A DNA stretch of 64,000 bases from an uncultured Opitutia bacterium (GTDB lineage: Bacteria > Verrucomicrobiota > Verrucomicrobiia > Opitutales > Coraliomargaritaceae), in NCBI GenBank assembly GCA_937136395.1, contig CAKZOI010000104.1, positions 1 through 64,000 on the forward strand, read 5' to 3'. The notes beneath the pieces are model-generated. The model was given only the letters and a program-made list of their open reading frames with translations. It was not told where the DNA came from and did not search any database. The position numbers were made by a program, and so were the translations under genes. Numbering within the stretch: position 1 is the first letter of the stretch; every line of letters begins with the position of its first letter. Shown here piece after piece: positions 1,297 through 60,461 of the stretch.

Positions 1297-1309
1297 CTGG
1301 AAACGGGGA

Positions 1310-1391
1310 AACATCGGACGTTGAACATCGAACGTCGAATTTTGAATGGTAATGTCGCGTGGTCGCTTGAGAACTATTCGATGTTCAGCGT
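1310..1391. repeat. Heptad array upstream of folC with short inverted partner
   Basis: Five consecutive 7-bp units at 1310-1344 (AACATCG, GACGTTG, AACATCG, AACGTCG, AATTTTG) lie just 5' of the folC start. An 11-bp stretch of this array (1322-1332) is exactly repeated in inverted orientation at 1377-1387. The tract fills most of the accD-folC gap. The same words occur at 3922-4055. Read directly from the sequence; function unknown. Confidence 0.75.
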
Positions 1392-3054: not shown

Positions 3055-3066
3055 TGAGTCGGAAAA

Positions 3067-3101
3067 GAAGTTAGAAGTGAGTCCTTAGAAGTTATCCAGT
3101 C
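3067..3101. repeat. Heptad array upstream of comF-like gene
   Basis: Units GAAGTTA, GAAGTGA, GTCCTTA, GAAGTTA, TCCAGTC follow each other without gaps, beginning 12 nt upstream of the ComF-like start codon. They occupy about a third of the gap to truA. The pattern is degenerate but the 7-bp period is clear in the first four units. Confidence 0.6.
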
Positions 3102-3921: not shown

Positions 3922-4055
3922 GAGTTGTGAAGTGTGAAGTTGAGAACATGGGAACGTTGAACGTCCAACATCGAACGTCCAATGTTGAAACTGGGCGGAA
4001 ACGGCGGTCAATTTAAATTCATGATTCGAAGTTGGACGTTCGATGTTCGATGTTC
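3922..4055. repeat. Inverted pair of heptad arrays between truA and tauE
   Basis: The left array (about 3922-3987) contains GAGTTGT, GAAGTGT, GAAGTTG, then after a 10-base interruption AACGTTG, AACGTCC, AACATCG, AACGTCC, AATGTTG. The right array (4028-4055) is GAAGTTG, GACGTTC, GATGTTC, GATGTTC, the reverse-complement sense of the same words. Arms at 3957-3989 and 4026-4056 are near-complementary over about 30 bp, around a spacer of roughly 36 bp. Each arm reads GATGTTC-type words in the mRNA sense of the gene it precedes (truA minus, TauE/SafE plus). It could fold as a long hairpin. Confidence 0.8.
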
Positions 4056-4070
4056 AAAGTCTCTGTTTGA

Positions 4071-14041: not shown

Positions 14042-14056
14042 GGTGATGAGTCTTAA

Positions 14057-14091
14057 GAATTAGGAATTAAAAATTAGGAACTATGAGGTTA
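14057..14091. repeat. Heptad array upstream of the RlmB-like gene
   Basis: Units GAATTAG, GAATTAA, AAATTAG, GAACTAT, GAGGTTA run in register, beginning 15 nt upstream of the start codon of the minus-strand methyltransferase gene. Very similar to the array before accD (2278-2312); both also share AGACTCAT in mRNA sense near the start codon. Confidence 0.65.
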
Positions 14092-14096
14092 ACTAA

Positions 14097-14160
14097 AGTG
14101 GAAGCGACACTCTTGTCGCTTTGGATGTCTGGGTAAAGCGACAAGAGTGTCGCTTCTACT
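14097..14160. repeat. REPIN-like inverted pair of hairpins after ruvB
   Basis: Two 26-bp arms (14097-14122 and 14135-14160) are reverse complements with one mismatch, around a 12-bp spacer. Each arm is itself a hairpin, AGCGACA-CTCT-TGTCGCT. It lies exactly in the ruvB/RlmB-like gap and overlaps the ruvB stop codon by two bases. This is the layout of a REPIN (paired REP sequences). No RAYT transposase is in the window. It may also act as a transcription barrier. Confidence 0.8.
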
Positions 14161-18179: not shown

Positions 18180-18235
18180 GGTAATAACTAATGAATAATT
18201 ATTAGCTATTACCCATTATCCATCACCCATTTGCG
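18180..18235. repeat. Heptad array and imperfect palindrome upstream of the CPBP gene
   Basis: Eight 7-bp units follow each other: GGTAATA, ACTAATG, AATAATT, ATTAGCT, ATTACCC, ATTATCC, ATCACCC, ATTTGCG. The first 34 bp (18180-18213) form an imperfect palindrome, so the array switches sense in the middle. It ends 13 nt before the CPBP start codon. Confidence 0.65.
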
Positions 18236-22848: not shown

Positions 22849-24045
22849 CTAGTGCTGAATTTCGTAGGTCAGTGTCTTGCCTGCGTGCTGGATGGTGACG
22901 TGGTTTTGACCGTCATCGCGTTGCGTGGCTTCTGTGCGGCCGACGATTTGGGCGGGGATGCCGAAGGCCTCACTCTTGGCGATGATGTCTGCGGCGGCTT
23001 CTGGCTCACAGTAGATATCCATGCGGTGGCCCATGTTGTAGACGCGGAACATTTCCTCGTCGCTGGTGCCACTGGCTTTTTGGATCGCTTTAAAGATCGG
23101 TGGGATGGGAAGAAAGTTGTCCTTAATATGGTGCACGCCTGTGCCGAAACGAATACATTTGGTTTGGCCGCCGCCGGAGCAGTGCACCATGCCGTAGATT
23201 TGGTCGCGGTTCTCCGTAAGGAGTTGTTTGATAATGGGCGCGTAGGTGCGTGTGGGACTAAGAAGTGCGTCGCCGACGGTCATGTTGGAGTCGGGCAGGG
23301 GATCGCTCATTTTATAGGGACCGCAGTAAAGGTATTGTTTGTCGGTGGTGAGATCGACGGTTTCAGGGTATTTTTCGAGGTAGTAGGGGCTGAGCAAATC
23401 GTGACGAGCGCTAGTAAGGCCGTTGCTGCCGATTCCTGAGTTTTCGAAGGTTTCGTAAGTCGCTTGACCTGATGAGGCGAGCCCGACGATCATAAGACCT
23501 GGTTTGATATTTGCATTATCAACCACGTCTTTGCGATCCATCACGACGACGGCACAGGAATCGACGGTGACTGTGCCCGTGAGGTCACCTACGTCGGCAG
23601 TTTCGCCACCGCCGCTATGCACGCCGACTCCGTAGTCGCGAAGCGTGGCGAGGAAGTCTTCAGTGCCAGAAATCAGTTGGCCAAGTGCTTCTGCGGGGAT
23701 CGACCGCGCATTTCGGTTCACTGTGCTGGATATGAGAATGCCATTAATCGCGCCAACGCAGAGAAGGTCGTCGATATTCATCACGAGGCTATCTTGTGCG
23801 GTTTTGCGGAAGCCTGTTGGATCGCCGGTTTCTTTGTAATGAAGGTAGGCGAGTGTGCTCTTGGTGCCAGATCCGTCTGAGTGTATGATGTTACACTTGT
23901 CAGGGTTTCCTGTCAGTATGTCGGATCCGATTTTGCAGAATGCACCTGGGAAGACCCCGCGATCGAGCTTATCCACGACGGCGTGGACTTCGGATTTTGA
24001 AGAAGAAACGCCGCGTTGGGCGTAGCGATCAGTGGAATTGCTCAT
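22849..24045 (-). CDS. purM: Phosphoribosylformylglycinamidine cyclo-ligase, long Bacteroidetes-type
   Basis: ATP-dependent ring closure of FGAM to AIR in purine synthesis. 398 aa, longer than the usual 345-aa PurM but matching the Bacteroidetes/Verrucomicrobia variant that starts with [15 protein letters not shown]. Key segments are [43 protein letters not shown] and [13 protein letters not shown]. The AIR-synthase N and C domains are both present. Its leader contains the left copy of the 30-bp repeat bounding the GxxExxY element, 16 nt before the start codon. Confidence 0.92.
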
Positions 24046-24061: not shown

Positions 24062-24091
24062 AACCGTTAATGAACGTGAATGGACGTTAAT
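24062..24091. repeat. Left 30-bp terminal inverted repeat of the GxxExxY element
   Basis: Begins AACCGTTAATGAACGTG and ends GACGTTAAT. It is identical, as reverse complement, to 24469-24498 with no mismatch over 30 bp. In the mRNA sense of purM it can also be read as consecutive 7-bp words (TAACGTC, CATTCAC, GTTCATT, AACGGTT), the layout seen before other genes in this window. Confidence 0.9.
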
Positions 24092-24159: not shown

Positions 24160-24480
24160 TCAGTCCCGTCGCTTTTTTGTGATTTTCAAGTAGTTGATGA
24201 TTTGGCCGATGTCATCGTTGTGAATGGCTTCGACCGCCTTAGTGTCTACTACTATTAGGTCATCGACTTCAAGGTCGGGAATGTATTCGTCGACTTTTAC
24301 ATCTCTGTATATGATGGGATATCTGCTTTGCTGGCTGTAGCGTATTCCTTGGTGTTGAAGTTCTACGATCAGAGCCCGTTCATATGTTTTTTCTCTTAGG
24401 CCGTGCCCGATTACGTTGTGCACTGTCATTGCGGCACCAACTACTTTAAAAACTAAATCGTCTATTTGATTAACGTCCAT
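24160..24480 (-). CDS. GxxExxY family protein (PD-(D/E)XK nuclease-like), C-terminus lost to a frameshift
   Basis: 106 aa in the uninterrupted frame. The name-giving motif is Gly27-x-x-Glu30-x-x-Tyr33 in GHGLREKTYE. A nuclease-like core follows: Pro68-Asp69 and Asp79-Thr-Lys81 (VVDTKAVE), matching the PD-(D/E)XK pattern of this family. The normal C-terminus is missing because the frame ends at KKRRD. In the -1 frame the expected family ending appears (GLILNFKHPKLEWRKV) and stops at 24098-24100. Adding one base to the six-base A-run (T6 at 24173-24178 on the plus strand) restores a full-length protein spanning 24098-24480. Function of the family is unknown. It lies between purM and plsC, enclosed by 30-bp inverted repeats. 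Confidence 0.8.
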   Translation of the reverse strand: MDVNQIDDLVFKVVGAAMTVHNVIGHGLREKTYERALIVELQHQGIRYSQQSRYPIIYRDVKVDEYIPDLEVDDLIVVDTKAVEAIHNDDIGQIINYLKITKKRRD

Positions 24481-24498
24481 TCACGTTCATTAACGGTT
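24469..24498. repeat. Right 30-bp terminal inverted repeat, containing the GxxExxY start codon
   Basis: Reverse complement of 24062-24091 with no mismatch. The ATG of the GxxExxY gene (24478-24480, minus strand) is inside it, so the repeat encodes the first residues (MDVN). The base at 24498 is also part of the plsC stop codon. Confidence 0.9.
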
Positions 24499-25139
24499 CA
24501 AATTATCGTTGTTTGCGGTGCTTTGAGTTTCGTGATGCGCTCCATGATTCGGCGGGAGGCTTCTAGGTAGCGCTCTGGGTGGTCTTTGCCCGGGTCGATC
24601 TCGGCGGTGGTCATCGGCTTACCGTAGGCGATGTGGATTTGGCCGCCAATTTTAGGGATTTTATCGTGGCGACTGAAGACTTCGTAGGTTCCAAAAAGTC
24701 GAGTCGGAATCACTGTGGCTTTGGATTTGCAGGCAATCATTCCTGCGCCGGCTTTGGGCTCCATGAGCTCACCAGTGTCCGAGCGGGTGCCTTCCGGGTA
24801 GATGGCAATCGCCCCCTTTTTTTTGAGTGCACGGAAAATTGCTTTCAGAGAGGCGACATCTGCATTTTCGCGGGCGACTGGAATCGCTTCGAGGCGATGG
24901 AGCGCTTTGCCTAGGGTTCCTTTGAAGAGAGAGTCACGTGCAAAGTAGTTGATATGGCGATGGACTTGGCAGCCGATTGCTGGAGGATCGAAAAAGCTGA
25001 TATGGTTTGCCGCGAAGATGACGCTGCCGTCGAGCGGAACGTTTGAGATTCCCGAGGTGCTAAAATTGTAGAATGTGCTGAAAAACCAATCAGAAGTAAT
25101 TCGGACGCCATTATAGAATGTCGGTATCTTTGGGTGCAT
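24498..25139 (-). CDS. plsC: 1-acyl-sn-glycerol-3-phosphate acyltransferase family protein
   Basis: Membrane-associated acyltransferase that makes phosphatidic acid from lysophosphatidic acid. The NHxxxxD motif is NHISFFDPP, and the second motif is IYPEGTRSDTGEL. 213 aa. It follows cmk by 7 bp, and cmk-plsC is a frequent operon pair, so the phospholipid role is likely, though acyl specificity is not visible. The stop codon coincides with the end of the GxxExxY element, so the element lies exactly at the 3' end of this operon. Confidence 0.9.
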   Translation of the reverse strand: MHPKIPTFYNGVRITSDWFFSTFYNFSTSGISNVPLDGSVIFAANHISFFDPPAIGCQVHRHINYFARDSLFKGTLGKALHRLEAIPVARENADVASLKAIFRALKKKGAIAIYPEGTRSDTGELMEPKAGAGMIACKSKATVIPTRLFGTYEVFSRHDKIPKIGGQIHIAYGKPMTTAEIDPGKDHPERYLEASRRIMERITKLKAPQTTII

Positions 25140-27187: not shown

Positions 27188-27227
27188 GAAAAGCTGAAAA
27201 GCTAAAAAGCTGACAGGCAGAAAGGAG
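27188..27227. repeat. Octamer tandem repeat between tyrA and aroA
   Basis: Five 8-bp units GAAAAGCT, GAAAAGCT, AAAAAGCT, GACAGGCA, GAAAGGAG run up to 7 nt before the aroA start (minus strand). It occupies the same position relative to the start codon as the heptad arrays elsewhere in the window, but with period 8. Confidence 0.65.
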
Positions 27228-56626: not shown

Positions 56627-56631
56627 TGTTA

Positions 56632-56744
56632 TTAATGGCTAATGAATAATAGCTAATTGGTAATGGATGCTGGTTAAATGGAAATGGCAAATGTTTCGGT
56701 CTCGGTATCCTTAGCGATTAGCCATTATCGATTAGTCATTAAAT
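56632..56744. repeat. Heptad arrays in inverted pair between sufD and sufT
   Basis: Left units TTAATGG, CTAATGA, ATAATAG, CTAATTG, GTAATGG (56632-56666) start 5 nt from the sufT start. A right arm at 56715-56744 (about ATTAGCC, ATTATCG, ATTAGTC, ATTAAAT) is the reverse-complement sense; about 22 of 26 positions match. The spacer is about 48 bp. Confidence 0.65.
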
Positions 56745-58162: not shown

Positions 58163-59581
58163 TTATCCGACGCTGCCTTCCATTTCCATGTCGATAAGGC
58201 GCTTGAGCTCGACGGAGTATTCCATCGGGAAAGCTTTCATTAGGTCATTTACGAAACCGTTCACGGCGAGCGACATCGCTTCGCCTTCGGAAAGACCGCG
58301 CTGCATCATGTAGAAAATCTGCTCGGCGCTGACTTTGGATACACTGGCTTCGTGCTGCACGGTGTTATTTTCGCCGCGTGTAGTGATCGCGGGATAGGTG
58401 TCGGTCCGGCTGTTGGTGTTGATCAACAGAGCATCGCACTCGGTATTGTTCTTACAATTTTTGAGATGCTTCGGCATGTGGACTTGGCCGCGATAAGTGG
58501 AGCGTCCTTTGCCGATGGAAATCGACTTAGAGATAATGTTACTCGTGGTGTTGTCCGCGAGGTGCATCATTTTCGCACCAGTGTCTTGGTGTTGTCCGTC
58601 GTTGGCGAGTGCGATAGAGAGCACTTCGCCGCGAGCACCTTTACCCTTAAGGACTACGCCCGGATATTTCATGGTGAGGCGTGAACCGATGTTGCAATCG
58701 ATCCATTTCACTTCGGCGCCTTCGTCAGCCATGCCGCGTTTAGTGACGAGGTTGAAGACATTGGACGACCAATTTTGAACGGTGATGTATTGGATCTTGG
58801 CGTTTTTCAGTGCGACAAGCTCGACCACTGCACTGTGTAGTGTGGCGGTTTCAAACTTCGGCGCGGTGCAGCCTTCCATGTAGGTGATTTCGGAGTCTTC
58901 GTCGGCGATGATGAGCGTGCGCTCAAACTGACCGAAGTTTTCCGCGTTGATACGGAAGTAAGCTTGTAGGGGCTGCTTGAGTTTCACGCCTTTGGGCACG
59001 TAGATGAAGCTGCCGCCTGAGAAAGTAGCACTGTTGAGTGCGGAGAATTTGTTGTCAGCGGTCGGAATGACTTTGCCGAAGTAGGGGCGGAAGATTTCCG
59101 GATACTTGGCGAGACCTTCTGTGGAGCCGACGAAGATAACACCTTCTTTTTCCAAGTCTTCCTTCATGCGTGAGTAGGAAGCTTCGGAGTCGAATTGTGC
59201 TTCAACACCTGCGAGGAACTTGCGCTCTTGTTCGGGTATGCCGAGACGCTCGAAAGTTTCTTTCACGTCGTCAGGCACATCGTCCCAAGAGCGAGCAGGC
59301 ACTTGCCCCTTGGAGAGATAGTAACGGATTTTGTCGAAGTCGATATTCTCTAGATCTTTGTCGGCCCAATTGGTCGGCATAGGTTTCTTTTTGAATACTT
59401 CGAGTGCCTTGAGGCGGAATTCGCGCACCCATTCGTCGTCGTTTTTAACGTCGCTGATGTATTTGATGGTGTCTTCGGTCAGACCCACGCCAGCGTCGAA
59501 CTCGTAGTTCTCGGGATACTTGAAGTTTCCCTTCTCGGTATCGACTTTGATTGCTTCGTCTTGAATGTCGGTATCGGACAT
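58163..59581 (-). CDS. sufB: Fe-S cluster assembly protein SufB
   Basis: 472 aa; SufB is the scaffold subunit that assembles the nascent Fe-S cluster with SufC and SufD. Conserved blocks: [60 protein letters not shown] (with Cys) and [21 protein letters not shown]-terminal [20 protein letters not shown] ends the beta-helix. Same strand and immediately after sufC (47-bp gap). Confidence 0.96.
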
Positions 59582-59589
59582 AATTTAAA

Positions 59590-59617
59590 TGGTTTATGAT
59601 TAATGAATAATGACTAA
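59590..59617. repeat. Heptad array upstream of sufB
   Basis: TGGTTTA, then TGATTAA, TGAATAA and TGACTAA (59597-59617), the last three fitting TGANTAA perfectly. It starts 8 nt before the sufB start codon, in the 47-bp gap after sufC. Confidence 0.65.
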
Positions 59618-59628
59618 GAGAAGAATGC

Positions 59629-60390
59629 TTATGCCGGTGCGCCGACAAATTCTTCTTTGACCCAGTCGTAGCCTTTGGATTCGAGCTCCTTGGCAAGTTC
59701 GGCGTCGCCACTGTGGACGATACGCCCGTCGAACATGACGTGGACAACGTCGGGCACGATGTAATCGAGCAAGCGTTGGTAGTGAGTGATCACGAGGAAA
59801 CCGCGTTCTTCGGAACGCATGAGGTTCACGCCTTCAGAGACGATACGGAGTGCATCGATGTCGAGACCAGAGTCAGTTTCATCCATGATGCAATACTTTG
59901 GATCAAGCATCGACATCTGGAGGATTTCACAGCGCTTTTTCTCGCCACCGGAGAAGCCTTCATTGAGTGAACGTGCGGTGAACTTGCGGTCCATCTTGAG
60001 CGCGTCCATTTTGGCGTAGAGCTCTTTGTAATATTCGACGGCGTTGATGTCTTCACCTTCTGGTAGACGAGCTTGGCGAGCGGCGCGAATGAAGTTGGCG
60101 ATCGAAACACCAGGGATTTCTAAAGGATACTGAAAGGCTAGGAAGAGACCGGCTTTTGCGATATCGTCTGGCTCGCCACCGAGGATGTTGACGCCGTCGA
60201 GTAAAACTTCGCCGCTTTCGACGGTGTAGTCTTCGTGACCGGCGATGACCTTAGCCAGTGTGCTCTTGCCAGTGCCATTTGGACCCATGAGTGCGTGCAC
60301 TTCGCCCTTTGGAATGGTCAGGCTGAAGTCTTTAAGGATGGCTTGGCCATCGATGGATACGTTTAGATTTTTGATTTCTAGTGTGTTCAT
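59629..60390 (-). CDS. sufC: Fe-S cluster assembly ATPase SufC
   Basis: 253 aa ABC ATPase of the Suf system. Walker [16 protein letters not shown], signature [13 protein letters not shown], Walker [13 protein letters not shown], switch His in [13 protein letters not shown]. SufC powers SufB/SufD rearrangement. First suf gene after the Fur-family gene; the gene order C-B-D-T is a little unusual compared with B-C-D. Gap of 79 bp to the regulator contains a heptad array. Confidence 0.96.
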
Positions 60391-60398
60391 TTTAATAA

Positions 60399-60461
60399 GA
60401 AGTTAGAATTTAGAATTGAGTGAATTTAAATTTCAGCGTTTTAGATTTTCAGTATTTCAGC
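60399..60461. repeat. Heptad arrays between the Fur-family gene and sufC
   Basis: Units GAAGTTA, GAATTTA, GAATTGA, GTGAATT, TAAATTT, CAGCGTT, TTAGATT, TTCAGTA, TTTCAGC run through the whole gap, starting 8 nt from the sufC start codon. The sense changes around TAAATTT (GAA-type words first, TTC/TCAG-type words afterwards), so it is internally inverted. Confidence 0.6.

What the first reader, a model, noticed from the sequence alone, without database searches (positions are those of the whole stretch)
24062..24091. The GxxExxY terminal repeat looks like a heptad leader of purM, linking the two repeat systems
Seen: read in purM mRNA sense, the left repeat forms consecutive 7-bp words (TAACGTC, CATTCAC, GTTCATT, AACGGTT) and ends 16 nt before the purM start, the same layout as the arrays before other genes. 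The paired arrays at truA/TauE (spacer about 36 bp) and sufD/sufT (spacer about 48 bp) are inverted pairs without an ORF. Inference: solo and paired heptad arrays may be gene-less versions or remnants of GxxExxY elements, mobilised in trans, as MITEs are by autonomous transposons.
Basis: inference. Interest (0 to 1): 0.7.

Follow-up and report, generated by a model that had tools for sequence, protein, structure and literature searches.

The report
Repeat-ended gene cassettes and their relics
The repeat before purM is one end of a tiny one-gene cassette with 10-base repeats; the 7-base repeat arrays nearby belong to a sister cassette with a different gene, which offers an origin for puzzling 7-base repeats seen in many bacteria.

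Summary
A perfect 30-bp inverted repeat (24062-24091 / 24469-24498) encloses a 106-aa GxxExxY gene between a plsC-like gene and purM, 16 nt before purM. It is not a heptad array: its period is 10.

Heptads lead to another gene. In the own and 56 related genomes, GxxExxY arms with a clear period have 8-11, never 7; four-helix-bundle genes (PF05635, the protein of 23S rRNA intervening sequences) have arms mostly of period 7. Eleven of 11 window arrays resemble the latter best (9 above shuffles); the window repeat resembles only the former. Array motif tracks protein, in one clade across phyla.

The plsC-purM spacer shows a decay series: empty, GxxExxY, four-helix-bundle, then a purM leader keeping one arm. 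Arrays differ at 6 of 9 junctions between congeners. Some copies ride in MITEs with their own CCTA/TAGG ends, which 0 of 105 gene-bearing elements show.

Best model: sense-oriented operon-spacer cassettes resembling 23S intervening sequences; after gene loss the 3' arm persists as a host leader. Protein-array binding and the route of movement are inferred.

The parts
24062..24091 (-). 3' arm of the GxxExxY element (purM side), period-10 array, 16 nt before the purM start
24469..24498 (-). 5' arm, perfect reverse complement; overlaps the plsC-like stop codon by one base and contains the ATG of the GxxExxY ORF (24480)
24160..24480 (-). GxxExxY ORF, 106 aa (TIGR04256 101.9 bits; PF13366 PDDEXK_3 99 bits); the conserved C-terminus lies in another frame, so this copy is probably frameshifted
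22849..24045 (-). purM, downstream host gene
24498..25139 (-). PlsC-like acyltransferase, upstream host gene
1308..1345 (-). period-7 array, GAACRTC family; a pair with a similar spacer stands at this junction in G002
3064..3094 (-). period-7 array, AGAAGTT family, absent at this junction in G002
3950..4062 (.). gene-less inverted pair of GAACGTC-family heptad arrays (3954-3989 / 4025-4060); a similar pair in G002
14053..14084 (-). period-7 array, TTAAGAA family
18182..18231 (+). TTAGCCA-family heptads (short inverted pair; match to known arms not above shuffles); G002 has an AGAAGTTAG-family pair at this junction
27188..27214 (-). period-8 GAAAAGCT array, matches the four-helix-bundle element L072 of G001; absent here in G001 and G002
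56630..56744. gene-less inverted pair of TAATGGC/TTAGCCA heptads; solo in G001, absent in G002 (56630-56672 not above shuffles, 56711-56744 above)
59589..59618 (-). period-7 array, 7 nt before the start of the 58163-59581 ORF; similar arrays in G001 and G002
60398..60424 (-). period-7 array, AGAAGTT family, 7 nt before the start of the 59629-60390 ORF

Best explanation
24062-24091 is the 3' arm of a 437-bp single-gene cassette: a GxxExxY (PD-(D/E)XK-type) gene between two inverted 30-bp arrays of 10-bp units, inserted in sense in the plsC-purM spacer. The heptad arrays are the arms, or relics of the arms, of a sister cassette built the same way around a four-helix-bundle gene (PF05635, TIGR02436). 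SHOWN: the architecture, the period split in these relatives, motif-protein co-variation, sense orientation in operon spacers, turnover and decay at one junction, polymorphism of arrays at identical junctions, and the 3'-arm orientation of arrays before start codons. INFERRED: each protein recognises its own array (the four-helix bundle perhaps as a ring reading 7-nt units); the cassette is transcribed with the host operon and its arms form a stem that may be cut, as in 23S rRNA intervening sequences; it behaves as a selfish element; once the gene decays, the 3' arm remains because it has become the leader of the downstream gene.
For: Inverted arms (score >=14): 55 of 71 GxxExxY and 54 of 88 four-helix-bundle loci, against 1 of 64 and 0 of 84 displaced controls; 49 of 79 four-helix-bundle loci from many phyla against 0 of 72; 12 of 30 in five of those genomes, one a cyanobacterium, against 0 of 30 (it includes the loci of these genomes again). 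Period split. Window arrays match four-helix-bundle arms best, 11 of 11, 9 of 11 above the maximum of 20 shuffles; the window repeat scores 27.5 against GxxExxY arms and 8.0 against four-helix-bundle arms. Array and protein similarity correlate, 0 of 999 permutations as high, in both families; AGRAGTYAG motif upstream in sense in 18 of 34 and downstream in antisense in 23 of 34 loci at 55-70% identity to L038, controls 0 and 1, falling to 1 and 2 of 27 at 40-50%. Same protein and arrays at different sites. Sense orientation between co-directional genes 38 of 48 and 33 of 43, antisense 3 of 48 and 3 of 43, while co-directional spacers are 64% of intergenic bases. Decay and turnover at purM. 10 of 10 four-helix-type arrays before start codons, and the purM-side arm, have the 3'-arm orientation. 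RNA stem, z -7.1.
Against: 34 of 88 four-helix-bundle and 16 of 71 GxxExxY loci show no inverted arms at this threshold, and 26 of the 109 that do have no clear period. The period split is a rule of these relatives, not of the family: in other phyla four-helix-bundle arms have period 7 (29) but also 8 (8), 10 (4) and 9 (1), with 7 unclear. Correlations are modest (Spearman 0.17 and 0.28). Many protein pairs at 50% identity or more share flanks, that is, one inherited site (43 of 64 four-helix-bundle, 72 of 237 GxxExxY); of pairs at different sites only 8 of 21 and 29 of 165 share arrays. No insertion with an exact empty site or target duplication was found for a gene-bearing element. The four-helix bundle has no catalytic residues that I know of. 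Sense bias could be selection against polarity alone. No binding, expression or processing data exist here. For TAACTGA arrays in the cyanobacterium no parent gene was found.
Confidence: 0.62

Rival explanations
1. Mobile regulatory switch: the protein is an RNA-binding regulator, the array before a start codon is its operator (on its own gene first), and solo arrays are recruited operators of other genes.
For: Arrays lie at or within a few nt of many start codons; arms contain start and stop codons in G002 (by eye); MacGregor 2015 (PMC4679880; abstract, sections 3 and 10 and found passages read) proposed translational control for TAACTGA arrays; close solved relatives have five chains per entry.
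Against: Before host genes the arrays have the 3'-arm orientation (10 of 10), complementary to the strand that precedes the cassette's own gene; array families change at one junction between congeners, which is odd for a conserved regulon.
Confidence: 0.17
2. Ordinary DNA transposon: the arrays are terminal repeats cut by an unidentified transposase, and the two genes are accessories.
For: Dispersed copies with the same ends (L030/L032, 94% identical proteins in two genera); array-carrying MITEs with 5-bp duplications exist.
Against: 0 of 105 gene-bearing elements have the MITE ends with a 4- or 5-of-5 duplication; the cassettes at purM have room for one small gene only; strong sense bias.
Confidence: 0.12
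3. Replication slippage makes short-period arrays by itself and the genes beside them are incidental (the slippage idea of Mrazek et al. 2007, as reported in PMC4679880, section 3).
For: Arm lengths differ between copies at a shared site (L065 33 nt, L067 48 nt).
Against: Arms are inverted and matched across about 400 bp, family-specific in period, and co-vary with the protein.
Confidence: 0.05
4. One reading: heptad arrays are gene-less GxxExxY elements.
For: Same overall layout; GxxExxY-type gene-less pairs do exist, with their own periods of 8 (L001) and 11 (L097).
Against: Period and sequence differ.
Confidence: 0.04

Closest known systems
23S rRNA intervening sequences (IVS) with the S23p ORF, e.g. 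Coxiella (PMC4990558; abstract and introduction read)
   Same: One small ORF of the same protein family (PF05635) between complementary ends that can form a stem; 428-444 nt in Coxiella, while the plsC-purM spacer that holds a four-helix-bundle cassette is 407-458 bp; called parasitic there, with horizontal transfer proposed.
   Different: Cassettes here lie in protein-coding operon spacers, their ends are short-period arrays matched to the protein clade, and a second, unrelated protein (GxxExxY) uses the same plan. Whether rRNA IVS ends are also periodic was not tested.
Intergenic heptamer repeats: TAACTGA of Beggiatoaceae, Cyanobacteria and Bacteroidetes (MacGregor 2015, PMC4679880); STRR of cyanobacteria (recalled)
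   Same: Period 7, two to several units, often just before start codons, differing between relatives.
   Different: The main text has no 's23' or 'four helix'; here several heptad families are the arms of four-helix-bundle cassettes.
MITEs, including one containing a minisatellite in Porphyromonas gingivalis (PMC4596501; search listing only)
   Same: Gene-less, fixed-length dispersed copies, inverted repeats, target duplications, arrays inside.
   Different: The MITE ends (CCTA/TAGG) are not the arrays and were not found on gene-bearing cassettes.
REP sequences with RAYT transposases (recalled)
   Same: A small protein gene flanked by inverted short repeats, with many solo repeats in the same genome.
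   Different: The cassette gene is PF13366 or PF05635, not a Y1 transposase; presence of RAYT genes in these genomes was not searched.

Membership tests
GxxExxY / PDDEXK_3 protein family | Match above the curated cut-off | tested here: met
   TIGR04256 101.9 bits (cut-off 35), PF13366 99 bits (cut-off 22)
GxxExxY / PDDEXK_3 protein family | Nuclease activity | not testable with these tools
   Window copy probably frameshifted near its C-terminus
Heptad array (period-7 intergenic repeat), window repeat 24062-24091 | Period 7 | tested here: not met
   Period 10
IVS-type element (four-helix-bundle cassettes) | S23p-family ORF | tested here: met
   PF05635 in 3 of 4 proteins scanned; loci found by TIGR02436 or by tblastn
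IVS-type element (four-helix-bundle cassettes) | Complementary ends | tested here: met
   54 of 88 loci against 0 of 84 controls
IVS-type element (four-helix-bundle cassettes) | Location inside 16S or 23S rRNA | tested here: not met
   Three intact copies lie between plsC-like and purM genes; 36 of 43 four-helix-bundle cassettes have a downstream ORF in the same direction. Not every locus was checked for rRNA
IVS-type element (four-helix-bundle cassettes) | Excision by RNase III | not testable with these tools
   Only the predicted stem of the window GxxExxY element
MITE (window arrays) | Fixed-length copies with terminal repeats and target duplication | tested here: inconclusive
   Fixed-length families elsewhere in G000, G002 and G010: of 20 loci read, 5 of 5 duplication in 8 and 4 of 5 in 3, ends chosen for the best duplication; the window's own arrays were not shown to belong to them
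MITE / DNA transposon (gene-bearing cassettes) | CCTA/TAGG ends with 5-bp duplication as in the array-carrying MITEs | tested here: not met
   0 of 105, searched up to 70 bp outside the arms
REP/RAYT system | Y1 transposase in the cassette | not tested
   No search for Y1 transposases was run; the cassette genes identified are PF13366 or PF05635

The most novel reading that the evidence does not exclude
A widespread class of minimal selfish cassettes exists in bacteria in which one small protein (a ring-forming four-helix bundle, or a GxxExxY nuclease) reads a short tandem array at both ends, each protein clade with its own unit and spacing, and spreads between cistrons of operons, possibly at RNA level. 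rRNA intervening sequences are its special case, and many of the intergenic heptad repeats of bacteria are its footprints, kept as leaders of host genes.
Probability: 0.4. Interest if true: 0.88.

Novelty: new variant of a known kind. Interest (0 to 1): 0.74.

Why it matters
Heptamer repeats before bacterial genes have been reported for years, with slippage or unknown regulators offered as explanations (PMC4679880). Tying many of them to a named gene family gives a testable parent and a predicted binder for each array family, and a lead on the role of two poorly understood families (PF05635, PF13366). The purM spacer series also shows, in one place, how a cassette decays into the leader of a housekeeping gene.

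Tried and rejected
Heptad reading of the window repeat: rejected. One common origin of GxxExxY ends and heptads by sequence: rejected for the window's arrays. Gene-bearing cassettes as CCTA/TAGG transposons: rejected (0 of 105). TAACTGA arrays of the cyanobacterium G061 as arms of its four-helix-bundle genes: no support; four exact arrays found and no match of my query proteins beside them. A solved structure for GxxExxY: none at E <= 1. Start-codon proximity of all period-7 arrays: only modest with crude gene calls (2 of 16 inside ORFs; of the other 14, 9 within 25 nt, against 34% of random intergenic positions).

Selections: 72 of 123 GxxExxY matches and 89 of 112 four-helix-bundle matches (sums) were analysed, mostly the full-length ones; 1 of each lay too near a contig end. 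The score cut-off of 14 and the period cut-off of 0.55 were mine. In one search, 79 of 80 loci were used (L256 at a contig edge). In one search, 75 of 80 (L254, L255, L256, L260 and L289 left out as partial or at an edge). In one search, 48 of 55 and 43 of 54 elements had both neighbours callable; several are one inherited site in several genomes, so counts are not independent. The 11 window arrays were picked and by eye; one search uses 10 of them (not 56711-56744, which is the outer member of its pair). In one search, 30 of the 45 matches had loci and were used. The reading of the nine junctions is by eye.

Full report
OBSERVATION. The window carries a perfect 30-bp inverted repeat, 24062-24091 and 24469-24498. 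Between and partly within the arms lies a 106-aa ORF on the minus strand (24160-24480) that matches TIGR04256 GxxExxY at 101.9 bits and PF13366 PDDEXK_3 at 99 bits. The neighbours are purM (22849-24045) and a PlsC-like acyltransferase (24498-25139), both in the same direction. The left arm ends 16 nt before the purM ATG, as reported. The right arm overlaps the acyltransferase stop codon by one base and contains the ATG of the ORF. The conserved C-terminus of the GxxExxY protein is found in another frame, so this copy is probably broken, or the assembly has an error.

PERIOD. The repeat is three 10-bp units; lag-10 identity is 0.75 and the next lags are 0.42 and 0.38. The heptad reading fails. 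The window does hold true period-7 arrays, and in 452,652 bp of window plus syntenic contigs period 7 is the commonest of periods 4-13: 16 arrays against a mean of 0.0 in shuffles.

TWO CASSETTES. The own genome has three GxxExxY matches and five four-helix-bundle matches; it and 56 relatives hold 123 and 112. Of analysable loci, 55 of 71 and 54 of 88 have inverted arms, against 1 of 64 and 0 of 84 displaced controls. Clear periods: GxxExxY 10 (17), 9 (10), 8 (8), 11 (1) and 19 unclear; four-helix-bundle 7 (33), 8 (6), 12 (4), 6 (2), 9 (1), 13 (1) and 7 unclear. Eleven of 11 window arrays match four-helix-bundle arms best; 9 exceed the maximum of 20 shuffles. The two that do not are 18182-18231 (13 against 14) and 56630-56672 (13 against 13.5). 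The window repeat matches GxxExxY arms (27.5) and not the others (8.0; shuffle maximum 11). Two array families of the window have a four-helix-bundle cassette in the same genome: GAACGTC (L064) and AGAAGTT (L038).

PROTEIN AND ARRAY TRAVEL TOGETHER. Array similarity follows protein identity (Spearman 0.17 for four-helix-bundle, 0.28 for GxxExxY; 0 of 999 permutations as high in either). Pairs at 60-90% identity share arrays in 56% (four-helix-bundle) and 36% (GxxExxY); pairs under 35% in 0.00 of cases. Many similar pairs share a site, but not all: of 21 four-helix-bundle pairs at different sites 8 share arrays, and of 165 GxxExxY pairs 29 do; L030 and L032, in two genera, have 94% identical proteins. 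A scan of named genomes, cut at the best 80 loci, gave four-helix-bundle loci from many phyla: 49 of 79 have arms, controls 0 of 72; periods 7 (29), 8 (8), 10 (4), 9 (1) and 7 unclear, so outside the relatives the period is less strict. Within the clade nearest to L038 the motif AGRAGTYAG is shared across phyla, in sense upstream (18 of 34) and in antisense downstream (23 of 34), controls 0 and 1. In a cyanobacterium (title of L215: Sphaerospermopsis) 4 of 6 analysed copies have heptad arms, with AATTGAY-, TAATTCG-, AAGTCAA- and GGTAATT-like units.

ONE JUNCTION, MANY STATES. I compared the plsC-purM spacer in 30 genomes of the family. It is 19-34 bp and empty in G005, G012, G016 and G008. It holds a GxxExxY cassette in G000 (probably frameshifted), G001, G004, G011 and G018; broken ones in G014, G027, G032 and G034; the last 26 residues and an end in G024; end-like pieces (by eye) in G015, G028, G022, G033 and G025; and a four-helix-bundle cassette in G002, G010 and G030. 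G031 keeps residues 60-102 of a four-helix-bundle protein followed by a heptad leader directly before purM. The rest: G019, G059 and G057 (82-90 bp, with short end-like pieces by eye), G009 (50 bp), G007 (96 bp) and G060 (146 bp, with N) gave no protein match, and in G021 the upstream gene was not found. G036, not among the 30, has a four-helix-bundle match about 50 bp before purM. The GxxExxY proteins at this site do not follow their hosts: G000 and its congener G001 are 64% identical (purM 95%), while G000 is 79% identical to the copy upstream of plsC in G010 and G001 is 81% identical to G011, both from other genera. So the site has been refilled more than once, or exchanged between lineages.

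POLYMORPHISM. Nine window junctions were set beside G002, four of them also beside G001 (read by eye). Six differ from G002: 3066 and 27188 are absent there (27188 also in G001); 56630-56744 is absent there and solo in G001; at 18182 G002 has an AGAAGTTAG-type pair instead of TTAGCCA-type heptads; at 14053 and 60398 G002 has other short repeats. Three are alike: 1308, 3950-4062 and 59589. Tested, 10 of 10 window arrays that stand before a start codon resemble the 3' arm of four-helix-bundle cassettes better than the 5' arm, as expected for relics whose last part became the leader of the next gene; the purM-side arm does so among GxxExxY cassettes.

POSITION. Cassettes lie in sense between co-directional genes: 38 of 48 GxxExxY and 33 of 43 four-helix-bundle; antisense 3 and 3; the rest between genes of opposite direction. 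Co-directional spacers are 64% of intergenic bases in the sampled contigs. Median distances from upstream stop to arm and from arm to downstream start are 16.5 and 37.5 (GxxExxY) and 10 and 10 (four-helix-bundle) nt (crude ORF calls). As RNA, the window arms close into one long stem (-125.5 kcal/mol, z -7.1).

MITES. Pattern counts show many more arrays than genes: the AGRAGTYAG pattern has 53 matches (overlaps counted) in G000 and 200 in G010, and the decad pattern 20 and 30; the reversed control pattern gives 0 and 5, and 0 and 0. Some form fixed-length gene-less pairs. Twenty such loci, read with flanks, include MITEs of 205-211 bp (decad arrays inside) and 141-143 bp (heptad arrays inside) ending CCTA...TAGG; 8 of 20 have a perfect 5-bp duplication and 3 have 4 of 5, the ends being chosen for the best duplication. 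Gene-bearing cassettes showed no such ends (0 of 105). So arrays also ride inside a separate, conventional MITE.

MECHANISM. I favour an IVS-like selfish cassette. Shown: anatomy, period split in the relatives, co-variation, orientation, turnover and decay. Inferred: protein-array recognition, stem processing, movement. The 23S rRNA IVS of Coxiella is 428-444 nt, bordered by complementary sequences, with an S23p ORF, and is cut out by RNase III; S23p of Xanthomonas is a homopentamer (PMC4990558, abstract and introduction). Relatives of L038 in the PDB, 2gsc and 2rld, have five chains each. A ring that reads one 7-nt unit per subunit is an attractive but untested idea.

LITERATURE. Searches for GxxExxY (two papers; passages of one seen, the other as a listing), four-helix-bundle protein with inverted repeats or intervening sequence (20 of 301 listed) or as rRNA-intervening sequence protein (20 of 21), heptamers (25 of 5,264), long simple repeats (15 of 17), STRR (12 of 77), PDDEXK_3 (one), IVS with inverted repeats (12 of 83) and heptamer repeats with MITE or four-helix bundle (10 of 219) showed me no paper that, by title, start of abstract or passages read, links heptad arrays to these genes. 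Most of these lists were cut, and the library lacks most subscription journals.

Noticed in passing
L001 1470-2560 (own genome, contig C22): Next to an octad-armed GxxExxY gene, the first 26 codons of a gene I recognise (recalled) as gatB occur three times in tandem (starts at 1931, 2194, 2466), each copy preceded by octad arrays; the first two read on through the arrays as open frames of 77 and 80 codons.
   Followed up: partly
G000, G002 and G010, e.g. L328-L333, L335, L337: MITE family of about 206 bp, CCTA/TAGG ends, 5-bp AT-rich target duplications, with inverted decad arrays inside; present in two genera. Its transposase was not sought.
   Followed up: partly
L339-L345 (own genome): A second MITE, 141-143 bp in L343 and L345, with the same CCTA/TAGG ends but heptad arrays inside.
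   Followed up: partly
window 14097-14160: GC-rich hairpin repeat (AGCGACACTCTTGTCGCTTT) just upstream of a heptad array; looks REP-like.
   Followed up: no
L097 (G004): Gene-less ACCGCTTAA-family inverted pairs stand on either side of a GxxExxY gene of the same array family.
   Followed up: no
G043, contigs C16, C17, C92: Near-identical four-helix-bundle or GxxExxY copies, some at contig ends, suggest recent multiplication.
   Followed up: no
L003 (own genome, contig C71): Third GxxExxY-like match sits in a 242-aa open frame near 34-bp inverted arms of period 16; may be a distinct subtype.
   Followed up: no
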